Of a DNA stretch of 64,000 nt, positions 10,981 to 54,275 are shown piece after piece. This stretch comes from a virus. The position numbers were made by a program, and so were the translations under genes. Within the stretch, counting starts at the first letter, position 1; every line of letters starts with the position of its first letter. The notes under the pieces were generated by a model. It had not been told where the DNA came from and did no database searches. It was given only the letters and a program-made list of their open reading frames with translations. The stretch lies in the IMG/VR virus record IMGVR_UViG_3300017963_005353, positions 19,526 through 83,525 of that record, one strand, 5' to 3'.

Positions 10981-11366
10981 GGGTCGCCGCATCCGAGCAA
11001 GTTTTCGAGACGGCAAACCTAATATGGCTCGACGTGCACGGGGGCCTGATGTTCATGGTCCACGAGTATGGCACGTGGATTGGCTGCCCGGACAGATGGG
11101 CGGGACAGGCGTATGACCCGATCCAGGTGGGAGAGGGCCGATCGGCTGTGGTGCGCGGCTTTGGCTACCTTTTCCACCTGGCACGGGATGGGCGGTCGAT
11201 CGTCTCGCTGGGGCAAACTGGGCAGCCGATCTCAAAAGAGCAGGGATACAAGGCAGGCGTTGAAGAGCACGACGATGGTTGGACCATGACAGACAGCTAT
11301 GGGCGGGTGCTGGAGCTTAGGGTCAAACAGGGCGTTGCCCTGTGGAGCGCCTCTCACTGGCCTTAG
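10977..11366 (+). CDS. Unknown 129-residue protein
   Basis: Starts at ATG 10977 (ATGA overlap with the previous stop); ATG 10968 in the same frame is possible. Beta-rich with many Gly, Trp and His residues; no recognised motif. A longer reading upstream in this frame is only a shadow of the membrane protein gene. It closes the tail/lysis operon: 53 bases later a new Shine-Dalgarno starts the sugar genes. Confidence 0.45.
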   Translation: MRVAASEQVFETANLIWLDVHGGLMFMVHEYGTWIGCPDRWAGQAYDPIQVGEGRSAVVRGFGYLFHLARDGRSIVSLGQTGQPISKEQGYKAGVEEHDDGWTMTDSYGRVLELRVKQGVALWSASHWP

Positions 11367-14653: not shown

Positions 14654-15121
14654 ATTGAGCCCTGTACTTGTCATACAGGACAAGTGCATGGGACAACCGC
14701 CCTCTAGCGAGCAAAAAGGACAATCCCCGCACTCCCCGATCCACGCCCACTGCCCAGGAATCCCATCGTTCTCCAGGCAACAGAGCATCATTTGAAACTG
14801 GCTTTGCACCACCCACCCTTGCCTCTCGACGTGCTTCAGGTGCCCGTCGAAAGGCTCCGGGTCTTGCTCGAGGGCGAACCCGAGCTCGGCCTGTAGCCCA
14901 TGCCCATGCCATGCCCGGCCCACCGCCCCGGTCGGTACGTGGAGCTCAGGCGGGGGCGTCACGTCCAGCAGGGGCACGTCGCCATCCGTGTCAAGATAAA
15001 GCGTCCACGTGTTTCGCCCCGTCAGCTTGTGGAACACGAACACGACGCCCTTGTCTGACCCCAGGGCATCGGGGTAGTGCAAGGCAAAGCCCCGCTCGAA
15101 ATTGACTTGAAACGCCCTCAC
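14642..15121 (-). CDS. Unknown 159-residue protein
   Basis: Start GTG 15121 is preferred since GGGAGGTG lies just upstream and a promoter about 25 bases before it. Acidic beta-rich N-terminal half, Cys-rich end (CCLEN, CGDCPFCSLEGGC) that may bind zinc. Last gene of the long minus-strand operon. Family not recognised. Confidence 0.5.
   Translation of the reverse strand: MRAFQVNFERGFALHYPDALGSDKGVVFVFHKLTGRNTWTLYLDTDGDVPLLDVTPPPELHVPTGAVGRAWHGHGLQAELGFALEQDPEPFDGHLKHVERQGWVVQSQFQMMLCCLENDGIPGQWAWIGECGDCPFCSLEGGCPMHLSCMTSTGLNLTE
14660..14687. repeat. 28-bp element, copy 1 (hairpin-forming)
   Basis: CCCTGTACTTGTC then CAGGACAAGTGC with three variable bases between; ACTTGTC pairs with GACAAGT. 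26 of 28 bases equal the copy at 53766-53793. Here it lies within the end of the 14642 gene, just upstream of a minus-strand promoter. Confidence 0.6.
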
Positions 15122-26894: not shown

Positions 26895-27979
26895 GCCCCC
26901 AGGAATTCAGCGATCTCAGTTGTGCTCAGTTCGGTTTCAAACATCTCGCCCGGCCCGTGAGTGAGGATAGCGTTGACCACGCCCGGCTTGTTGCCCCGTT
27001 TTTTGTCCTGACCGAGAGCTTGAATCAAAGACTGGCCGGTCGGGAAGTCCACTCTAGAGCAAAACCCATGATAGACATTCCTGGCAATCTGTGTCATTTC
27101 ATGGCAGGTATCACGGCTCAGGTAGCCCTTTTCCCAGGAGATCTCACAGGCGATCTCAATGCCCCCGGCGACCGCGATGCCGTGGGGGATCTGTGGGTCA
27201 ACCGCCTCGATGGCATGGCCGAATGTATGCCCCCAATTGAGCAGTCGGCGCACGCCTGTGTCTCGCTCGTCTTGCATGATGTATTCGCGCTTGATCTGGA
27301 GCGTTGCCCTGGCAGCCTTGACAAGCTCATCGTGTGCATACTCCAGATCAGGGTCGAGCATGTTGCCCAAGGTGTCTTTGACCCATTTGTACCACTGTCC
27401 ACCCTGCACCATGAAAAAGTGGAGCATCTCGCCTATCCCTGATAGTTGCTCCAGGTGGGGGAGCGTCAGGAGAAATGAGCGGTCGATCAACACCACTTCA
27501 GGCGGCCAGATGGTGCCAATGATGTTTTTGTAGCCGCCCAGGTTGATGCTCGTTTTGCCCCCTATACAGCTATCGGCCTGGGCGAGCAAGGTCGTGGGGA
27601 AATAGACCCACTTGATGCCCCGCATATACACGCTGGCCGCAAACCCGCCCAGGTCCATAAGCGAGCCCCCACCGACGACAAAGAGCCTGTTTTGGCGGGA
27701 GACGCCCTTTTCCAGGAACTCTGTTAGCAGGGAAACAACGTGGGTCAGGGTTTTTATCTGTCTACCCAGGCCCTCGAATGGTGGGCAGATAAAGGCTCTC
27801 TCAGCCTGTATGAGATCGTCAATCTGCTCTGAGTATCCATGGTAGATTGCGGGGTCGATCATCACCGGGTCCCCAGGGGCGATCAGGCTTTCCAGTGCAT
27901 CGAGCCAATTGCCGGTTTCTTGTATGGTGTAGTCTTGCACCTGGCTTGAGATTGCCAGCTTGAACTCATTGTCGGACAT
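26891..27979 (-). CDS. Dehydroquinate-synthase-like sugar-phosphate cyclase
   Basis: 362 residues. Start ATG 27979 has GGAGGG seven bases upstream. NAD loop GGGSLMDLGGF near residue 103; PTTLLAQADSCIGGKTSIN is close to AroB; metal ligands are all present: Glu in GIGEMLH, His in NWGHTFGHAIE, His in PHGIAVAGG. The canonical AroB NHPxGKN is replaced by NLGGYKN, so it may be a relative such as a valiolone- or inosose-type cyclase. It turns a sugar phosphate into a carbocycle, and is the key clue that this operon makes a pseudo-sugar. Confidence 0.8.
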   Translation of the reverse strand: MSDNEFKLAISSQVQDYTIQETGNWLDALESLIAPGDPVMIDPAIYHGYSEQIDDLIQAERAFICPPFEGLGRQIKTLTHVVSLLTEFLEKGVSRQNRLFVVGGGSLMDLGGFAASVYMRGIKWVYFPTTLLAQADSCIGGKTSINLGGYKNIIGTIWPPEVVLIDRSFLLTLPHLEQLSGIGEMLHFFMVQGGQWYKWVKDTLGNMLDPDLEYAHDELVKAARATLQIKREYIMQDERDTGVRRLLNWGHTFGHAIEAVDPQIPHGIAVAGGIEIACEISWEKGYLSRDTCHEMTQIARNVYHGFCSRVDFPTGQSLIQALGQDKKRGNKPGVVNAILTHGPGEMFETELSTTEIAEFLGA

Positions 27980-36901: not shown

Positions 36902-36954
36902 TTTATCTTCCTGTTCTCTTCTGTTCTGTCTATAAACCGTCCAAATTCACCATT

Positions 36955-36983
36955 ATTATACCACAACGTGTTGATTCTGTCAA
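36955..36983 (-). promoter_or_regulatory. Promoter of the helicase-IbrAB module
   Basis: Minus strand: TTGACA at 36983-36978, 17-bp spacer ending TGTGG, TATAAT at 36960-36955. Divergent to the 37000 promoter, with 16 bases between the two -35 boxes. Confidence 0.85.
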
Positions 36984-36999
36984 ATAAAACCGCCCTGAT

Positions 37000-37028
37000 T
37001 TGACACCATAGACTTGTTGTGGTATAAT
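37000..37028 (+). promoter_or_regulatory. Promoter of the plus-strand membrane-protein operon
   Basis: TTGACA at 37000-37005, 17-bp spacer ending TGTGG, TATAAT at 37023-37028, extended -10 TGG. Same family as its divergent neighbour. Confidence 0.85.
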
Positions 37029-37079
37029 AACGTTGTAACTTCTTGGGCGATCCAGCACGATTTCAAGCGAGGGAGTACC

Positions 37080-45294: not shown

Positions 45295-46353
45295 TCAAAC
45301 CTCCAATCTCGGCGGTGGCTCTTCCCGCTCTACCGCCACATTCTGATCTGGCCTACGCTCCAGGTCCAGGTCGGTCAGTCCATGCTCCATACCCCATTCG
45401 AGGAGGGGGGCCAGGAGCGATGACAAGCCCCTGAGCGGATCTCTCCTGTGGGCAAACAGACTGTCGGGCGTTGGATTCATCCAGGCGATGTTGCCCGGTA
45501 TCCACACACGGCGACCGTTGTCTTTGTTCAAAGCATAGGCGACAATCGCCCTACCCCACTGGTGCAATGCCCAGGCCAGTGTCTCGGCATTTGTGCCCCT
45601 GAGCTCTGCCAACCTTCGGAGCTCACGCGCCCAAGCCGTTTCTTCTGCTGAGGTCAGGTTGGCACGCTGGCGACCGATCAGATGGCACCATTGGGTCAGC
45701 GGGCCGTCTTTGTAGGCATCAGCACCGCCGGCCGTCTCAGGGACTGTGAAGGAGGTGGCGTCATTGGCTTTTCTGGCATGGGCAAGGAGCATACCCTCGG
45801 CAGGGTCTTTTCCAAACCTGGCTACTTGTCGTTCTTTCTGATTTTCCTGTTTTTGGGTTGGGGGGGAGGGTATAATTGACGGATCTTCTAACGGATCAAT
45901 GACGGATCTTGACGGATCATGCGACATAGCTGTGTCACTTATTTGGCCCTGGGTGTCACTTACCGTGGACAAATCTTGTTCATCCACAGTAGAAATGTCA
46001 CTTATCTGCTCCTGCACACTAAGTGACATTTTGTCACTTAGTGATTGGCCGGTGAACGCGACAACCCGTTTGTCGGCTTCCCTAAACCGCTGCTTGGTCA
46101 ATCCGACTAGTACCACATAAACATTGCCGCTGTTGCGACGATGAACGGCAGCAAGCTCTTCGGTTTCCTCAAGGCGTTGAATCAGCCGCTTGGTTTGTCG
46201 TTTGGACATTCGGATTTTTTGGGCCAGTGTATCAATGCTGGGCCAGCAAAATCCATTATCATCAGCAAAATCAGCGAAGGCGAGTAATAGCAGTAAGGGA
46301 GAACCCTTCATTTTGCTTTGTTCCCAAACGCGATTCATGCAGGCAATACTCAT
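45295..46353 (-). CDS. Replication initiator with N-terminal winged helix (lambda O / DnaD-like)
   Basis: 352 residues from ATG 46353 (AAAGGAAC upstream). N-terminal helix-turn-helix region (ADDNGFCWPSIDTLAQKI, RMSKRQTKRLIQRL) is that of phage replication initiators; a low-complexity Ser/Asp/Gln linker spans residues ~110-160; a helical C-terminal domain follows. The linker DNA contains the iterons described separately, as in lambda O. Binding these is the expected first step of phage replication. Confidence 0.75.
   Translation of the reverse strand: MSIACMNRVWEQSKMKGSPLLLLLAFADFADDNGFCWPSIDTLAQKIRMSKRQTKRLIQRLEETEELAAVHRRNSGNVYVVLVGLTKQRFREADKRVVAFTGQSLSDKMSLSVQEQISDISTVDEQDLSTVSDTQGQISDTAMSHDPSRSVIDPLEDPSIIPSPPTQKQENQKERQVARFGKDPAEGMLLAHARKANDATSFTVPETAGGADAYKDGPLTQWCHLIGRQRANLTSAEETAWARELRRLAELRGTNAETLAWALHQWGRAIVAYALNKDNGRRVWIPGNIAWMNPTPDSLFAHRRDPLRGLSSLLAPLLEWGMEHGLTDLDLERRPDQNVAVEREEPPPRLEV
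45879..46043. other. Putative replication origin (iterons inside the initiator gene)
   Basis: Four ACGGATC repeats at 879-885, 891-897, 902-908 and 912-918 (each with GATC), and five TGTCACTTA iterons at 45933-45941, 45954-45962, 45996-46004, 46020-46028 (inverted) and 46032-46040. The last two form a perfect 12-bp arm dyad around a TTT. Spacings of 21 and 42 bases are whole helical turns. TCATCCACA at 45980-45988 is one base from a DnaA box. Confidence 0.7.
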
Positions 46354-46390
46354 GTTGCTTGTTCCTTTCAAAACACGGTTGGTCTTTGTT

Positions 46391-46969
46391 TCATTCCGTG
46401 TAGGTCGCAATCATCCATTGCACGTCTTTTTCGTCCAGGGCAAACCACTCCCCCTTTGACCTTTTAGCTGAAAACCTGTTATGGAGGACGGTTTCAGTAG
46501 CAACACAATCATCAACAAATGCTGTATGAACGAGTGCTGTGTCGTACGGTATCATTTTATCAATTTGTGCCACGCGCTCCCTTGGCTCCTGTGTGGTCCG
46601 TCCAATCTTAAACAGGTCGTTGCAGCGTAGCAGGTAGATATATCCAGGGATTGGTTTATTGTTATTTGGTTCTCTTGGTGATATGCCCCATCTTTTTTCA
46701 AGGGTTTCATTGTCGGCCACGCTTATGTACCAAGCACTATCATAAAAAATGTACAAGGTACATACTTCTGCCAGAGCAACTTCCTTGACTAATGGGAATT
46801 GGTCCAGAATTCTAGCTGCTATGGCTTGCTTGCTATTTGGAAGGTTTTGACGATCCCAGCAAAAGCGAAAGCTTTCTCTGGCAGGACAGTCGGTTAGCTT
46901 TCCAGTATTACATTCTGTACAAAGCCAATCCGTTTTCTCCTTATAACGATCGAGTTGTCGCCCCCCCAT
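46391..46969 (-). CDS. T5orf172-like GIY-YIG superfamily protein
   Basis: 192 residues. N-terminal zinc motif (CTECNTGKL...CPARESFRFC), then a T5orf172 domain: GYIYLLRCNDLFKIGRTTQ, with conserved GRT and Arg, and a VLHNRFSAKRSKGEWF end. Related domains are DNA-binding or nicking. Near the origin it may have a replication or mobility role. Confidence 0.7.
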   Translation of the reverse strand: MGGRQLDRYKEKTDWLCTECNTGKLTDCPARESFRFCWDRQNLPNSKQAIAARILDQFPLVKEVALAEVCTLYIFYDSAWYISVADNETLEKRWGISPREPNNNKPIPGYIYLLRCNDLFKIGRTTQEPRERVAQIDKMIPYDTALVHTAFVDDCVATETVLHNRFSAKRSKGEWFALDEKDVQWMIATYTE

Positions 46970-46970
46970 T

Positions 46971-47240
46971 TTAGTCTAGGAGGGTGCCAACAAAGCTCAC
47001 TCCTCGGGCATTGGGTATGTTAAATACACCGCTTAATTCTGTTTCTATTATGTAAGCAACTCTATCGGCGGGCAATATGGTAGCTGAACAGAATGGGCAC
47101 TCCTCGAGAGGTAGTTTTTCTAGCTTATCTAGGGCCGCATCAATGAGGGGCAAGCTGCGGCGTATTTCCTTCCTGACCTCTGTTTCATAGGCAATCAGTT
47201 TGCGACGGTAAGCTTTGACACTTGCGATGCAGTCATTCAC
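46971..47240 (-). CDS. Unknown 89-residue protein
   Basis: Begins at GTG 47240 with AGAAAGGAA upstream. N-terminal charged coiled coil, then CPFCSA that may bind zinc. First gene behind the long structured leader, so it would be the first gene under its control. No family. Confidence 0.5.
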   Translation of the reverse strand: MNDCIASVKAYRRKLIAYETEVRKEIRRSLPLIDAALDKLEKLPLEECPFCSATILPADRVAYIIETELSGVFNIPNARGVSFVGTLLD

Positions 47241-47253
47241 GTCATTTCCTTTC

Positions 47254-47414
47254 TAAAAACAAAGACGCACTCTGTCCCGTGTCGGTTTGCCGGCTGGCGG
47301 GCTCCTGGGATAGAAAAGGCTTGGATACAGGAATACGGCAACCGGCACGAGACAAAATGCGCCTCTGCTTTTCTATCCTTCTATTGGGAGGCCGCCAGCA
47401 TCCCCGCTTGTTAT
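47254..47414 (-). ncRNA. Structured leader / candidate attenuator RNA
   Basis: Predicted RNA from about 47414. Hairpin 1: 399-387 with 305-293 (12 of 13 pairs) and 378-368 with 318-308 (11 perfect pairs). Hairpin 2: 363-336 with 292-264, 27 of 28 pairs (four G-U, one mismatch, one bulged A), followed immediately by UUUGUUUUU. The A-C mismatches seen on the plus strand become G-U pairs only on the minus-strand RNA, which supports this orientation. Hairpin 2 segment lies in the loop of hairpin 1, so the two are interlocked or alternative. Confidence 0.7.
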
Positions 47415-47420
47415 GATACA

Positions 47421-47449
47421 ATTATACCACAAACGGGGATCCCTGTCAA
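47421..47449 (-). promoter_or_regulatory. Promoter of the structured leader and replication operon
   Basis: Minus strand: TTGACA at 47449-47444, 17-bp spacer, TATAAT at 47426-47421. Spacer contains GGGATCCCC (with a GATC) then GTTTGTGG. Lies just downstream of the stop of the 47451 gene. Confidence 0.85.
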
Positions 47450-47450
47450 A

Positions 47451-47651
47451 TCAAGATCGAACAAAGGACACCACGATGCGGTGATAGTTCTGGCGGATCG
47501 CCCCATCGTATGTCCATTGGTCAAGCTTCCCACGCTCTTTCAGCAGGTTCTCGGCAAATTCCCTTGCTTGACCAAATAGCAGATCTTCATTAACCCCTGT
47601 CTGTTCAACGGTCAGTTTCAGTATTTCTGTCTCATATGCGATTCTCAACAT
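47451..47651 (-). CDS. Unknown 66-residue protein
   Basis: Start ATG 47651 with GGAGGAAATC close by. Helical, soluble; C-terminus RIVVSFVRS. Ends two bases upstream of the -35 box of the next promoter. No family. Confidence 0.45.
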   Translation of the reverse strand: MLRIAYETEILKLTVEQTGVNEDLLFGQAREFAENLLKERGKLDQWTYDGAIRQNYHRIVVSFVRS

Positions 47652-47913
47652 GATTTCCTCCATCTGTAAATAATGGCCGAAACCACGCACCGGGCATATT
47701 CTCATCTATCCAGCACAAAGCAATATCCTTTATCGATAGCCATAGGACACTCGTAAACTGCGACGGATATTCTTCAGTCTTATCATCCCATCGCCCTTCC
47801 ATATGCTTGAAATCTTCCTGTTTTACGGCTTGTTCCATAATGGCCGTTGCTTGGTCCTCGAAAAGCCCGTGCTCGAAGAGCATTTCTTCCATCTTTTCAC
47901 GGATAGTTGTCAT
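47632..47913 (-). CDS. Unknown 93-residue protein
   Basis: Acidic helical N-terminus (REKMEEMLFEHGLFEDQAT), then a beta-rich tail with ALCWIDENMPGAWF. Such short phage proteins are common next to clamp genes. Overlaps the next gene by 20 bases. Confidence 0.5.
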   Translation of the reverse strand: MTTIREKMEEMLFEHGLFEDQATAIMEQAVKQEDFKHMEGRWDDKTEEYPSQFTSVLWLSIKDIALCWIDENMPGAWFRPLFTDGGNHVENRI

Positions 47914-47937: not shown

Positions 47938-49086
47938 TCAATTCGGCATACTTCTCAAGCTCATAGGCATGAGCACATGCCTGAAGCTGTCGCCCTCCAC
48001 ACCGGCCGGCCTCATCAGCGCCGGGCTCGTGCTCTCCGTCGTGAGCAACTCCACGTGCTCGCTGCTCATCACGCCCAGCGCCTCCAGGAAAAACCGGGCG
48101 TTGAACGCGATGTCCAACTCGCGGTCCTTGTCCCCATGGGCCTCGACCTGGGCAGGGATGGTGGCGTTTGTGCCGCCCATCTCGTCGGTATTGGCTATGA
48201 CCGTCAGGTGGTCGTCCCGTATCTCCAGGCGCATGATCTCGGCCTGGAGCCTGGCGAAAATGCGGGCCGTCTTGCAGACGCGCTCCAGGTCGGCAGTCTT
48301 GACCACCGTTTTCATGTCGTACCCGGAGGGGACGATTTGGTTGTAGTCCGGGAACTTGCCAGCGATGGCTTGCGCCACCAGGTCCACGGAGGCCATACGG
48401 AAGGCGATCCGGGTGTCGGTGTCAACGTAGATTTGCACCTCCTCGTCTCTGGGTATCCTGAGCTTGGAAAAGCCCCACGCCGGCACGATCACCGCCTGCG
48501 GCTCCCAGGCTTTGCCGTCGAAGTGCTCTTTCACGACCGACAGACGAAACCCGTCGGCGGCGGCCATCGTGAGTTCGTCCCCGTCGAATCTCATCAGCAC
48601 GCCGGTCAAGGTCGGGCGTCCGCTGTCACGATCCGCCGTGGCGATCAGGCACCGGCCCGTCATGGTTTCCAACACATCGCCCGGCAATGTGGCGAGGTGG
48701 CTCCCCTGGGCGAACTCTGGGGCCAGGGGGAACTCCTCGGCGGGGACGCACTGGATCGTGGCTTTGTTGTTGGCGCATTGGACAGAGAGTTCGCTTTGGG
48801 CGAGGTTGAGCTCAAAGTCAACGCGCTCTTTGGGCAGGCTGTTCACCAGGTCCAGGAACAGCTTGGCGGGCACGGTCGTCTCGCCGGGCGCGTCCACTTT
48901 TTTCGCCCCGACCCTGCAATCCAGCCTAATCTCCAGGTCGGTGCCGGCCAGCGTCACATGGTCGGATTCGGTCGCTTGCAGATAGACGTTGCTCAGGACC
49001 GGGGGATGATAGGCTCCCCGCTCAATGGCCGGAGAAACGGTTCTCAGGCCGGCGGCCAGGTTCTCTTGCAACACTTGGAATTTCAT
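47938..49086 (-). CDS. dnaN: DNA polymerase III beta subunit (sliding clamp)
   Basis: 382 residues, full length for three-domain beta clamps. MKFQVLQENLAAGLRTVSPAI start, VLSNVYLQATESDHVTLAGTDLEI in domain 1, AADGFRLSVVKEHF in domain 2 and the C-terminal MPMSLRS ending match DnaN. It tethers the polymerase to DNA. A phage-coded clamp suggests its own or a host replicase uses it; no polymerase gene is in the window. Confidence 0.9.
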   Translation of the reverse strand: MKFQVLQENLAAGLRTVSPAIERGAYHPPVLSNVYLQATESDHVTLAGTDLEIRLDCRVGAKKVDAPGETTVPAKLFLDLVNSLPKERVDFELNLAQSELSVQCANNKATIQCVPAEEFPLAPEFAQGSHLATLPGDVLETMTGRCLIATADRDSGRPTLTGVLMRFDGDELTMAAADGFRLSVVKEHFDGKAWEPQAVIVPAWGFSKLRIPRDEEVQIYVDTDTRIAFRMASVDLVAQAIAGKFPDYNQIVPSGYDMKTVVKTADLERVCKTARIFARLQAEIMRLEIRDDHLTVIANTDEMGGTNATIPAQVEAHGDKDRELDIAFNARFFLEALGVMSSEHVELLTTESTSPALMRPAGVEGDSFRHVLMPMSLRSMPN

Positions 49087-53421: not shown

Positions 53422-53715
53422 CTAATCTCCATACAAATCTGCCATGGCTTCAGCAGTGGTCATGGACTCCGGTTGTGGTAGCCAGGGGAAAAGCTCTCTC
53501 AGGAGGGGGTCGTGGACGATCTCCACGAATTCGACCCGCTGCTGGTGCAACCTGCGCTCCAGGTAGCCTTTTCTCCAGGCTCCAAAGTGGGACGGGTCGG
53601 CGGCACAAACGATTGACCACGCTCCAGTCTCAGGGTCTCGCTCGAGCCTCAAATTGCTGTGGCAGACCCGGCAGACGTAGTTGTCGATGTAGTACCGCAA
53701 TGATTTTGCTGCCAT
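53422..53715 (-). CDS. Zinc-finger-like small protein
   Basis: 97 residues. CRVCHSNLRL and a later Cys (IVCAADPSHFG) suggest a degenerate zinc ribbon; helical C-terminus. First gene of the P(53.9 kb) operon. It has a 163-base leader with the hairpin element. Confidence 0.5.
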   Translation of the reverse strand: MAAKSLRYYIDNYVCRVCHSNLRLERDPETGAWSIVCAADPSHFGAWRKGYLERRLHQQRVEFVEIVHDPLLRELFPWLPQPESMTTAEAMADLYGD

Positions 53716-53765: not shown

Positions 53766-53793
53766 CCCTGTACTTGTCGTCCAGGACAAGTGC
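53766..53793. repeat. 28-bp element, copy 2 (hairpin-forming)
   Basis: CCCTGTACTTGTC, three bases, CAGGACAAGTGC; ACTTGTC pairs with GACAAGT. 26 of 28 bases equal to 14660-14687. Lies in the 5' leader of the 53715 gene. Confidence 0.6.
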
Positions 53794-53884: not shown

Positions 53885-53913
53885 ATTATACCACAAAAGC
53901 CCTGTTCTGTCAA
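53885..53913 (-). promoter_or_regulatory. Divergent promoter, minus side
   Basis: Minus strand: TTGACA at 53913-53908, 17-bp spacer ending TGTGG, TATAAT at 53890-53885. Spacer dyad ACAGAA-N6-TTTTGT is nearly ideal. Drives the large replication operon. Confidence 0.85.
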
Positions 53914-53944
53914 GCGAAACACACAACCAATTTTAGCTCTCGGT

Positions 53945-53973
53945 TTGACAGAACACAGATTTTATGGTATCAT
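53945..53973 (+). promoter_or_regulatory. Divergent promoter, plus side
   Basis: TTGACA at 53945-53950, 17-bp spacer with ACAGAA-N6-TTTTAT, TATCAT at 53968-53973. Drives the Cro/C1-like gene 20 bases downstream. Confidence 0.8.
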
Positions 53974-53993: not shown

Positions 53994-54275
53994 ATGCCGA
54001 TCACGATCCAATTGCAACGCCACATGCAGGAACACGAAAACGATCACAATGTCAGGTACACCATCCGGGAGTGGGCCAAGGTGCTCACCACCTGGGCAGA
54101 GGACAATCACCCTGAGGTGGCTGAGCCCGGTCTGAGCGTGAACTTTTTGCACCGCATGAAGCACAACGAGGTGGACTACCTGTCGCTGGAAAAGCTGGGC
54201 CTGTTGTGTGAGTTCTTCGATTGCACGCCCAACGACCTGCTCTGGCAGTCCAACGGTGATGAATCCCCGCAATAA
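53994..54275 (+). CDS. Cro/C1-type HTH regulator
   Basis: 93 residues from ATG 53994 (AGGAGG upstream). The helices RYTIREWAKVL, LSVNFLHRMKHNEV and LSLEKLGLLCEFFDCTPNDLLW match the XRE/Cro-C1 fold, with the last phrase highly typical. Divergent from the main replication promoter as in phage immunity regions. Best candidate for the repressor that reads the ACARAA-N6-TTTTGT dyad shared by the promoters, though it would then repress its own promoter as well. Confidence 0.75.
   Translation: MPITIQLQRHMQEHENDHNVRYTIREWAKVLTTWAEDNHPEVAEPGLSVNFLHRMKHNEVDYLSLEKLGLLCEFFDCTPNDLLWQSNGDESPQ

What the first reader, a model, noticed from the sequence alone, without database searches (positions are those of the whole stretch)
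47240..47449. Interlocked two-hairpin leader: attenuator or structured RNA before the replication operon
Downstream of a consensus minus-strand promoter, segments 399-387 and 378-368 pair with 305-293 and 318-308, while 363-336 pairs with 292-264 in a ~28-bp stem followed directly by UUUGUUUUU. Each stem lies in the other's loop, so they exclude each other or form a giant pseudoknot. The minus-strand RNA turns the A-C mismatches into G-U, which supports this orientation. Such a design is typical for ligand- or protein-controlled termination, or for an abundant viral RNA ending at the U-tract.
Basis: partly seen in the sequence, partly recalled or inferred. Interest (0 to 1): 0.85.

Follow-up and report, generated by a model that had tools for sequence, protein, structure and literature searches.

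The report
Interlocked-helix leader RNA in phages
Just before a phage's replication genes lies a strongly promoted RNA in which two long, mutually blocking helices are threaded through each other, and the same undescribed design recurs with different sequences in at least five other phages, most likely as a switch that decides whether transcription stops or goes on.

Summary
On the minus strand, behind a perfect sigma-70-type promoter (47449-47421), 23-bp helix H1 and 27-bp helix H2 interlock. H2 is the longest uninterrupted RNA helix in the 83.5-kb phage record: 6 G-U pairs, no A-C, running into UUUGUUUUU. None of 1,000 shuffles comes near.

New: the order promoter - A1 - A2 - B - A2' - A1' - B' - U-rich tail recurs without sequence similarity in related phages. 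Nine non-redundant cases, this one included, occur in 2.28 Mb, against 1,0,0,0 in four shuffles. Two paralogues in one phage (M1, M2) show nine two-sided compensatory changes, in both interlocked helices. Rfam, phages, plasmids and IMG/VR hold no match to this leader. Downstream genes differ, so replication is not the common theme.

Best reading: a cis-acting attenuator. H1 forms first and topologically blocks terminator H2; H2 becomes more stable than H1 only when the polymerase is near the U-tract. Main rival: a stable stand-alone small RNA with leaky read-through. The signal, the transcript and its end are untested.

The parts
47421..47449 (-). promoter TTGACA-17-TATAAT (-35 47449-47444, -10 47426-47421); predicted start near 47414
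   Evidence: 12/12 consensus with TG before -10; one of about 12 near-consensus promoters of this phage, several sharing TTGTGG before -10
47400..47440 (.). 12-bp inverted repeat (47400-47411 / 47429-47440) around the -10 box, possible operator
   Evidence: not shared with the other promoters
47391..47407 (-). 5' arm of early helix S0, pairs with 47341-47325
   Evidence: MFE of the first 90 nt -35.7 kcal/mol, z -3.4
47325..47341 (-). 3' arm of early helix S0
47387..47399 (-). A1, outer 5' arm of H1 (pairs with 47305-47293, one C-C mismatch)
47368..47378 (-). A2, inner 5' arm of H1 (pairs with 47318-47308, 11 bp)
47346..47372 (-). B, 5' arm of H2 (pairs with 47281-47255, 27 bp, 6 G-U); inner extension from 47344-47336
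47308..47318 (-). A2', inner 3' arm of H1, inside the H2 loop
47293..47305 (-). A1', outer 3' arm of H1, inside the H2 loop
47255..47281 (-). B', 3' arm of H2, ends in the U-tract UUUGUUUUU (47263-47255)
47247..47252 (-). Shine-Dalgarno-like AAAGGA, unpaired in the H2 state
   Evidence: sequence; pairing probability at most 0.10
46971..47240 (-). first gene downstream, 89 aa, GTG start 14 nt after the U-tract, unknown family
46391..46969 (-). second gene, GIY-YIG-like (T5orf172 / MUG113) protein
   Evidence: Pfam E 1.2e-13 and 5.3e-10
45295..46410 (-). third gene, replication initiation (O-like) protein
   Evidence: PHROG 391 E 4.6e-19

Best explanation
A cis-acting transcription attenuator of a new architectural type. 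The 5' part of the transcript (A1, A2) pairs with A2'-A1' as soon as these emerge, making helix H1. The 5' arm of the terminator hairpin (B) is then caught in the closed loop of H1, and its partner B' emerges last, outside that loop. H2 (B:B'), the U-tract hairpin, can then form only if H1 opens. H1 thus acts as a topological antiterminator: while it stands, the polymerase reads on into the operon; if something keeps A1/A2 from pairing with A1'/A2' (a ribosome, protein or complementary RNA), or if the polymerase pauses long enough for strand exchange, H2 forms and transcription ends near 47254, leaving a stable ~160-nt RNA. Shown here: helices, order, non-randomness, recurrence, covariation in two related leaders, stability cross-over at the U-tract. 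Inferred: that termination is regulated, that H1 is the read-through state, and any signal.
For: Both interlocked helices are far outside chance. Computed order is S0, then H1, then H2; H2 overtakes H1 once RNA to about 47265 is exposed, that is with about 13 nt of B' to go, roughly the length a polymerase hides when on the U-tract. No consensus promoter lies between the U-tract and the initiator gene; the best site there is 9/12, so the genes probably depend on reading through. An SD and start codon follow within about 30 nt of the tail in 7 of 9 cases. Nine cases in real phage DNA vs 1,0,0,0 in shuffles; a second scoring of 513 promoter regions gives the same set. M1/M2: 4 of 14 pairs of H1 and 5 of 26 of H2 changed on both sides, so both exclusive states appear to be kept by selection.
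Against: No transcript or 3'-end data. H2 is long (27 bp, large loop), not a typical intrinsic terminator, and the U-tails of M1, M2 and M6 are weak. In M5-M8 H1 stays more stable than H2 even at full length, so those may never terminate. No ligand-like conserved core; no common downstream gene. M0 itself has no homologue to test covariation, and a model of M1/M2 does not find it. Nested energy models do not score the pseudoknot.
Confidence: 0.5

Rival explanations
1. A stand-alone small RNA gene. The promoter and U-tract bound an abundant ~160-nt phage RNA whose ends are locked (5' arm in H1 or S0, 3' arm in H2), acting in trans; the downstream gene lives on leaky read-through.
For: In M3, M5, M6 and M7 A1 begins 6-7 nt after the -10 box, i.e. 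at the predicted start, so the 5' end is paired; strong promoters; different downstream genes; M5 and M6 lie opposite to late genes next to predicted tape-measure genes (gene identity by inspection).
Against: An SD and ORF follow the tail closely in most cases; no conserved loop motif as expected for a trans target beyond CCAAUAGAA shared by M0 and M2.
Confidence: 0.25
2. A giant H-type pseudoknot that acts as a folded platform, for example binding RNA polymerase (like HK022 put RNA), a phage protein or a nuclease, with both helices present at once.
For: In M3, M5 and M6 the loops (L2 1-3 nt, L1 24-39 nt, L3 11-16 nt) would let both helices stack and coexist.
Against: In M0 and M1 the loops are too short (L1 -5 and 3 nt) for both full helices; conserved nucleotides are scarce.
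Confidence: 0.12
3. A strong operon terminator between two gene blocks, with the interlocked second repeat a by-product.
For: H2 alone looks terminator-like; genes upstream run in the same direction.
Against: The interlocked pairing is itself outside chance and covaries in M1/M2; a consensus promoter right before a plain terminator would be pointless.
Confidence: 0.08
4. A DNA-level element (operator, origin or recombination site) with inverted repeats.
For: Neighbourhood of replication genes; palindrome around the promoter.
Against: G-U without A-C in all nine H2 helices, on the strand of the promoter and the ORF (partly a result of how they were searched); compensatory changes fit RNA pairing.
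Confidence: 0.05

Closest known systems
Fluoride (crcB) and similar transcriptional riboswitches
   Same: An early pseudoknotted or alternative fold competes with a later intrinsic terminator during transcription (PMC11077080; abstract seen)
   Different: No Rfam riboswitch match, no conserved aptamer; here the competing helices share almost no bases and exclude each other by topology
Antisense-controlled attenuators of plasmid replication genes (pIP501 repR; pT181)
   Same: Structured leader with a terminator in front of a replication gene (PMC4981023)
   Different: Those need an antisense RNA from the opposite strand; no plus-strand promoter of 9/12 or better lies in or just beside the leader
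Phage P4 CI RNA and P1/P7 c4 RNA immunity
   Same: Phage leader RNA with internal complementarities that controls termination before an early or replication operon (own knowledge)
   Different: No c4 (RF01695) match; P4 shows no promoter-linked interlocked element by the same descriptor
Type III toxin-antitoxin RNA loci (ToxIN)
   Same: Promoter - pseudoknot RNA - terminator - gene order (own knowledge)
   Different: No tandem repeats seen; the protein right behind M0 has no Pfam or PHROG match
HK022 put RNA
   Same: Structured RNA near strong early promoters (own knowledge)
   Different: put is about 70 nt with two separate hairpins; here interlocked helices and a U-tail

Membership tests
Transcription attenuator (general kind) | terminator-like hairpin with U-tract between promoter and gene | tested here: met
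Transcription attenuator (general kind) | an alternative, earlier structure incompatible with the terminator | tested here: met
   H1 and S0; non-random
Transcription attenuator (general kind) | regulated termination in response to a signal | not testable with these tools
   needs transcription assays
Rfam riboswitch or other described RNA family | match to a covariance model | tested here: not met
   no match at gathering score for the window; E<=5 gives only two sub-threshold miRNA models; in the loci of the other leaders only tRNA/tmRNA models match, elsewhere
Plasmid-type antisense attenuator | antisense promoter over the leader | tested here: not met
   no plus-strand site of 9/12 or better in 47200-47500; nearest 47645-47674
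c4 antisense RNA | RF01695 model match | tested here: not met
Type III toxin-antitoxin RNA | downstream toxin of a known family | tested here: not met
   the 89-aa protein has no Pfam or PHROG hit
The architecture described here (P-A1-A2-B-A2'-A1'-B'-U) | two-part H1 interlocked with H2, promoter upstream, U-rich tail | tested here: met
   M0-M8
The architecture described here (P-A1-A2-B-A2'-A1'-B'-U) | compensatory changes in both helices | tested here: inconclusive
   met for M1/M2, only two sequences; not testable for M0

The most novel reading that the evidence does not exclude
A widespread, undescribed class of phage RNAs that control transcription by topology: an early helix closes a loop around the terminator's 5' arm, so the terminator cannot form although its bases are free. 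The class would be conserved in architecture but not in sequence, which would explain why sequence-based RNA discovery missed it.
Probability: 0.35. Interest if true: 0.85.

Novelty: new variant of a known kind. Interest (0 to 1): 0.62.

Why it matters
Attenuators and riboswitches normally exclude the terminator by sharing bases with it. Here the exclusion is almost purely topological, and the design recurs in several phages with no sequence in common. It gives a concrete test of whether RNA threading can govern termination, a set of nine leaders to compare, and a descriptor that can be run over all phage genomes.

Tried and rejected
Sequence homologues of the leader: none in phages, plasmids or IMG/VR, nor of the 89-aa, GIY-YIG or initiator proteins by peptide pattern in IMG/VR. 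The nearest relative by terminase (71%, G001) is a fragment that matches only structural and sugar-nucleotide genes, not the replication module. A covariance model of M1/M2 finds only themselves and their own reverse strands above noise. blastn of M1, M2, M5, M6 in cultured phages gave nothing of use. Two Salinibacter phages (terminase 42%) have no promoter-linked member; P4 has none. Rejected: coding of the M1 leader (a 39-aa ORF with SD exists, but its paralogue M2 does not keep the frame; read by eye). Set aside: a second promoter between A2 and B in M5-M7; the TGnTAnAAT boxes are there, but in M5 they lie in a local hairpin. A DNA operator shared with other promoters was not found. The plus strand folds less well over the leader itself (-58.5 vs -69.4), though a shifted plus-strand stretch that takes in the promoter palindrome reaches -68.4.

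Full report
Where it is. The window is bases 19526-83525 of an 83,525-bp IMG/VR phage record, 57.6% G+C. The finding lies between a minus-strand block with a beta clamp (47938-49086) and a minus-strand block whose first three genes are an 89-aa protein of unknown family, a GIY-YIG-like protein and a replication initiator; methyltransferase and DnaC-like genes follow.

Check of the observation. The promoter is 12/12 and belongs to a set of about 12 near-consensus phage promoters, several with TTGTGG before the -10 box. H2 is longer than reported: 47372-47346 pairs with 47281-47255 without interruption, 27 bp with 6 G-U and no A-C, the longest uninterrupted helix of the record (next 20 and 17 bp), with an inner extension. 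H1 has 23 bp in three runs. The two are interlocked and share only AAAAG. Against 1,000 dinucleotide shuffles, the weaker of the two stems is -35.5 versus -15.2 +/- 2.5 kcal/mol and the sum -81.7 versus -36.1 +/- 4.2. A third helix, S0 (47407-47391 x 47341-47325), forms before either.

Folding order. Folding growing transcripts gives S0 (-35.7 at 90 nt), H1 (-45.8 at 123 nt), H2 (-68.4 at 162 nt); H2 overtakes H1 when RNA to about 47265 is out. A polymerase hides roughly 14 nt (own knowledge), so the change falls when it stands on the U-tract. The best H1-containing fold at full length is -55.7 to -57.7.

Relatives. The leader has no sequence homologue. Records of relatives were therefore fetched through their methyltransferase, clamp and terminase genes, and searched for structure. 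Long helices were rare, and one stood right after a perfect promoter with TTTGTGG in a 98,979-bp phage record (G010). Its upstream sequence pairs with the helix loop in two runs: the same A1-A2-B-A2'-A1'-B' order. Two more followed in the same phage, then five in other records: M4 in G003 (the methyltransferase relative), M5 in G042, M6 in G044, M7 in G004, M8 in G047.

Nine leaders. M0 window 47399..47255 (-); M1 L113 7989-8111; M2 L113 6216-6335; M3 L113 11740-11849; M4 L002 2386-2499; M5 L139 7862-8000; M6 L161 14849-14982; M7 L003 10749-10896; M8 L165 3539-3674 (all +). First coordinates are where A1 begins, within a few bases. All have a promoter-like site (0-3 mismatches of 12) upstream of A1; in M3, M5, M6 and M7 A1 begins 6-7 nt after the -10 box, hence at the predicted start. 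H2 helices contain 1-6 G-U and no A-C.

Is the recurrence real? The same descriptor on 2.28 Mb of real sequence gives 9 non-redundant hits at score <= -34 with promoter <= 3 mismatches, and 1, 0, 0, 0 in four dinucleotide-shuffled copies. Without the promoter filter real and shuffled hardly differ at that threshold (49 versus 37-49), so the promoter link carries much of the signal. The descriptor was written after seeing M0-M3; M4-M8 came from the scans. A second, mismatch-tolerant score on 513 promoter-downstream regions, each against its own shuffles, puts M1, M6, M8, M7, M0, M3, M4 in the first seven places and M2 tenth. M5's promoter fell outside that filter.

Covariation. M1 and M2 are paralogues (aligned). 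Of 40 pairs, 96% of cells are standard pairs, 9 pairs are changed on both sides, 0 of 500 shuffles reach this, and sliding the partners by 1-3 columns drops it to 0-1. Both helices contribute: 4 of 14 pairs in H1, 5 of 26 in H2. Two sequences are few, and M1/M2 are not detectable sequence homologues of M0: a model built on them does not find it.

Two subgroups. In M0, M1, M2 and M4, H2 is the more stable at full length, overtaking H1 with 7-18 nt of B' to go. In M3 the cross-over comes 2 nt before the end. In M5-M8 H1 stays the more stable. In M3, M5 and M6 the connecting loops would allow both helices to stand together; in M0 and M1 they are too short.

Mechanism. A closed H1 loop around B, with B' emerging last and tied to the polymerase, is a topological block on H2: the bases are free but the strands cannot wind. 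I take H1 as the read-through state and H2 as the terminator. The genes behind probably need read-through, since no consensus promoter follows the U-tract; the best is 9/12. What frees H2 is unknown; candidates are a ribosome on the AUG-CUG-GCG-GCC-UCC-CAA-UAG mini-ORF that covers A1 in M0 (no proper SD), a protein, or an RNA. A stand-alone RNA with leaky read-through is the chief rival.

Known systems. Rfam 15 has no match. Transcriptional riboswitches such as fluoride (PMC11077080, abstract) and antisense attenuators such as pIP501 repR (PMC4981023) work by related principles but differ in the defining parts. Weinberg et al. 2010 (PMC2864571) list c4 and other phage RNAs; none matched. I found no paper that describes this architecture, with the limit that only open-access text is held.

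Verdict. Real, non-random and recurrent; a new architectural variant of a structured leader or attenuator. Function is inferred.

Noticed in passing
window 14661-14685 (-) and 53767-53791 (-): A 25-bp element ACTTGTCCTGNNNGACAAGTACAGG occurs exactly twice (expected 0.01), both near strong phage promoters; possible operator.
   Followed up: partly
window about 14653-14545 (-): Short stand-alone RNA gene: promoter TTGACA/TAGAAT, then a GAGCCGGC...GCCGGCTC hairpin with seven U; a weak 5-6 bp interlocking pairing is possible.
   Followed up: partly
window 36951-37032: Two consensus promoters on opposite strands (36983- and 37000+) inside a 17-bp inverted repeat.
   Followed up: no
window 53885-53973: Divergent near-consensus promoters between an ORF that looks by eye like an XRE repressor (53994-54275 +) and ORF 53422-53715 (-); possible lysogeny-type switch.
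   Followed up: no
window 27747-27799 (+): Second longest RNA helix of the record, 20 bp with 5 G-U.
   Followed up: no
window 11026-11240 (+): Strongest nested fold of the window for its G+C (-92 kcal/mol per 165 nt).
   Followed up: no
L139, L161 and L003, just upstream of B (7925, 14914, 10820): Extended -10 boxes (TGTTATAAT, TGGTACAAT, TGCTAGAAT) between A2 and B in M5-M7; may be a second promoter that starts transcripts without A.
   Followed up: partly
L113 4924-5004: tmRNA-model match with a large internal gap near these leaders in phage G010, and tRNA-like remnants just before M1.
   Followed up: no
L079 6479-6541 (+): A 30-bp hairpin with 7 G-U, preceding small ORFs in another relative; its loop is too short to be interlocked.
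   Followed up: partly
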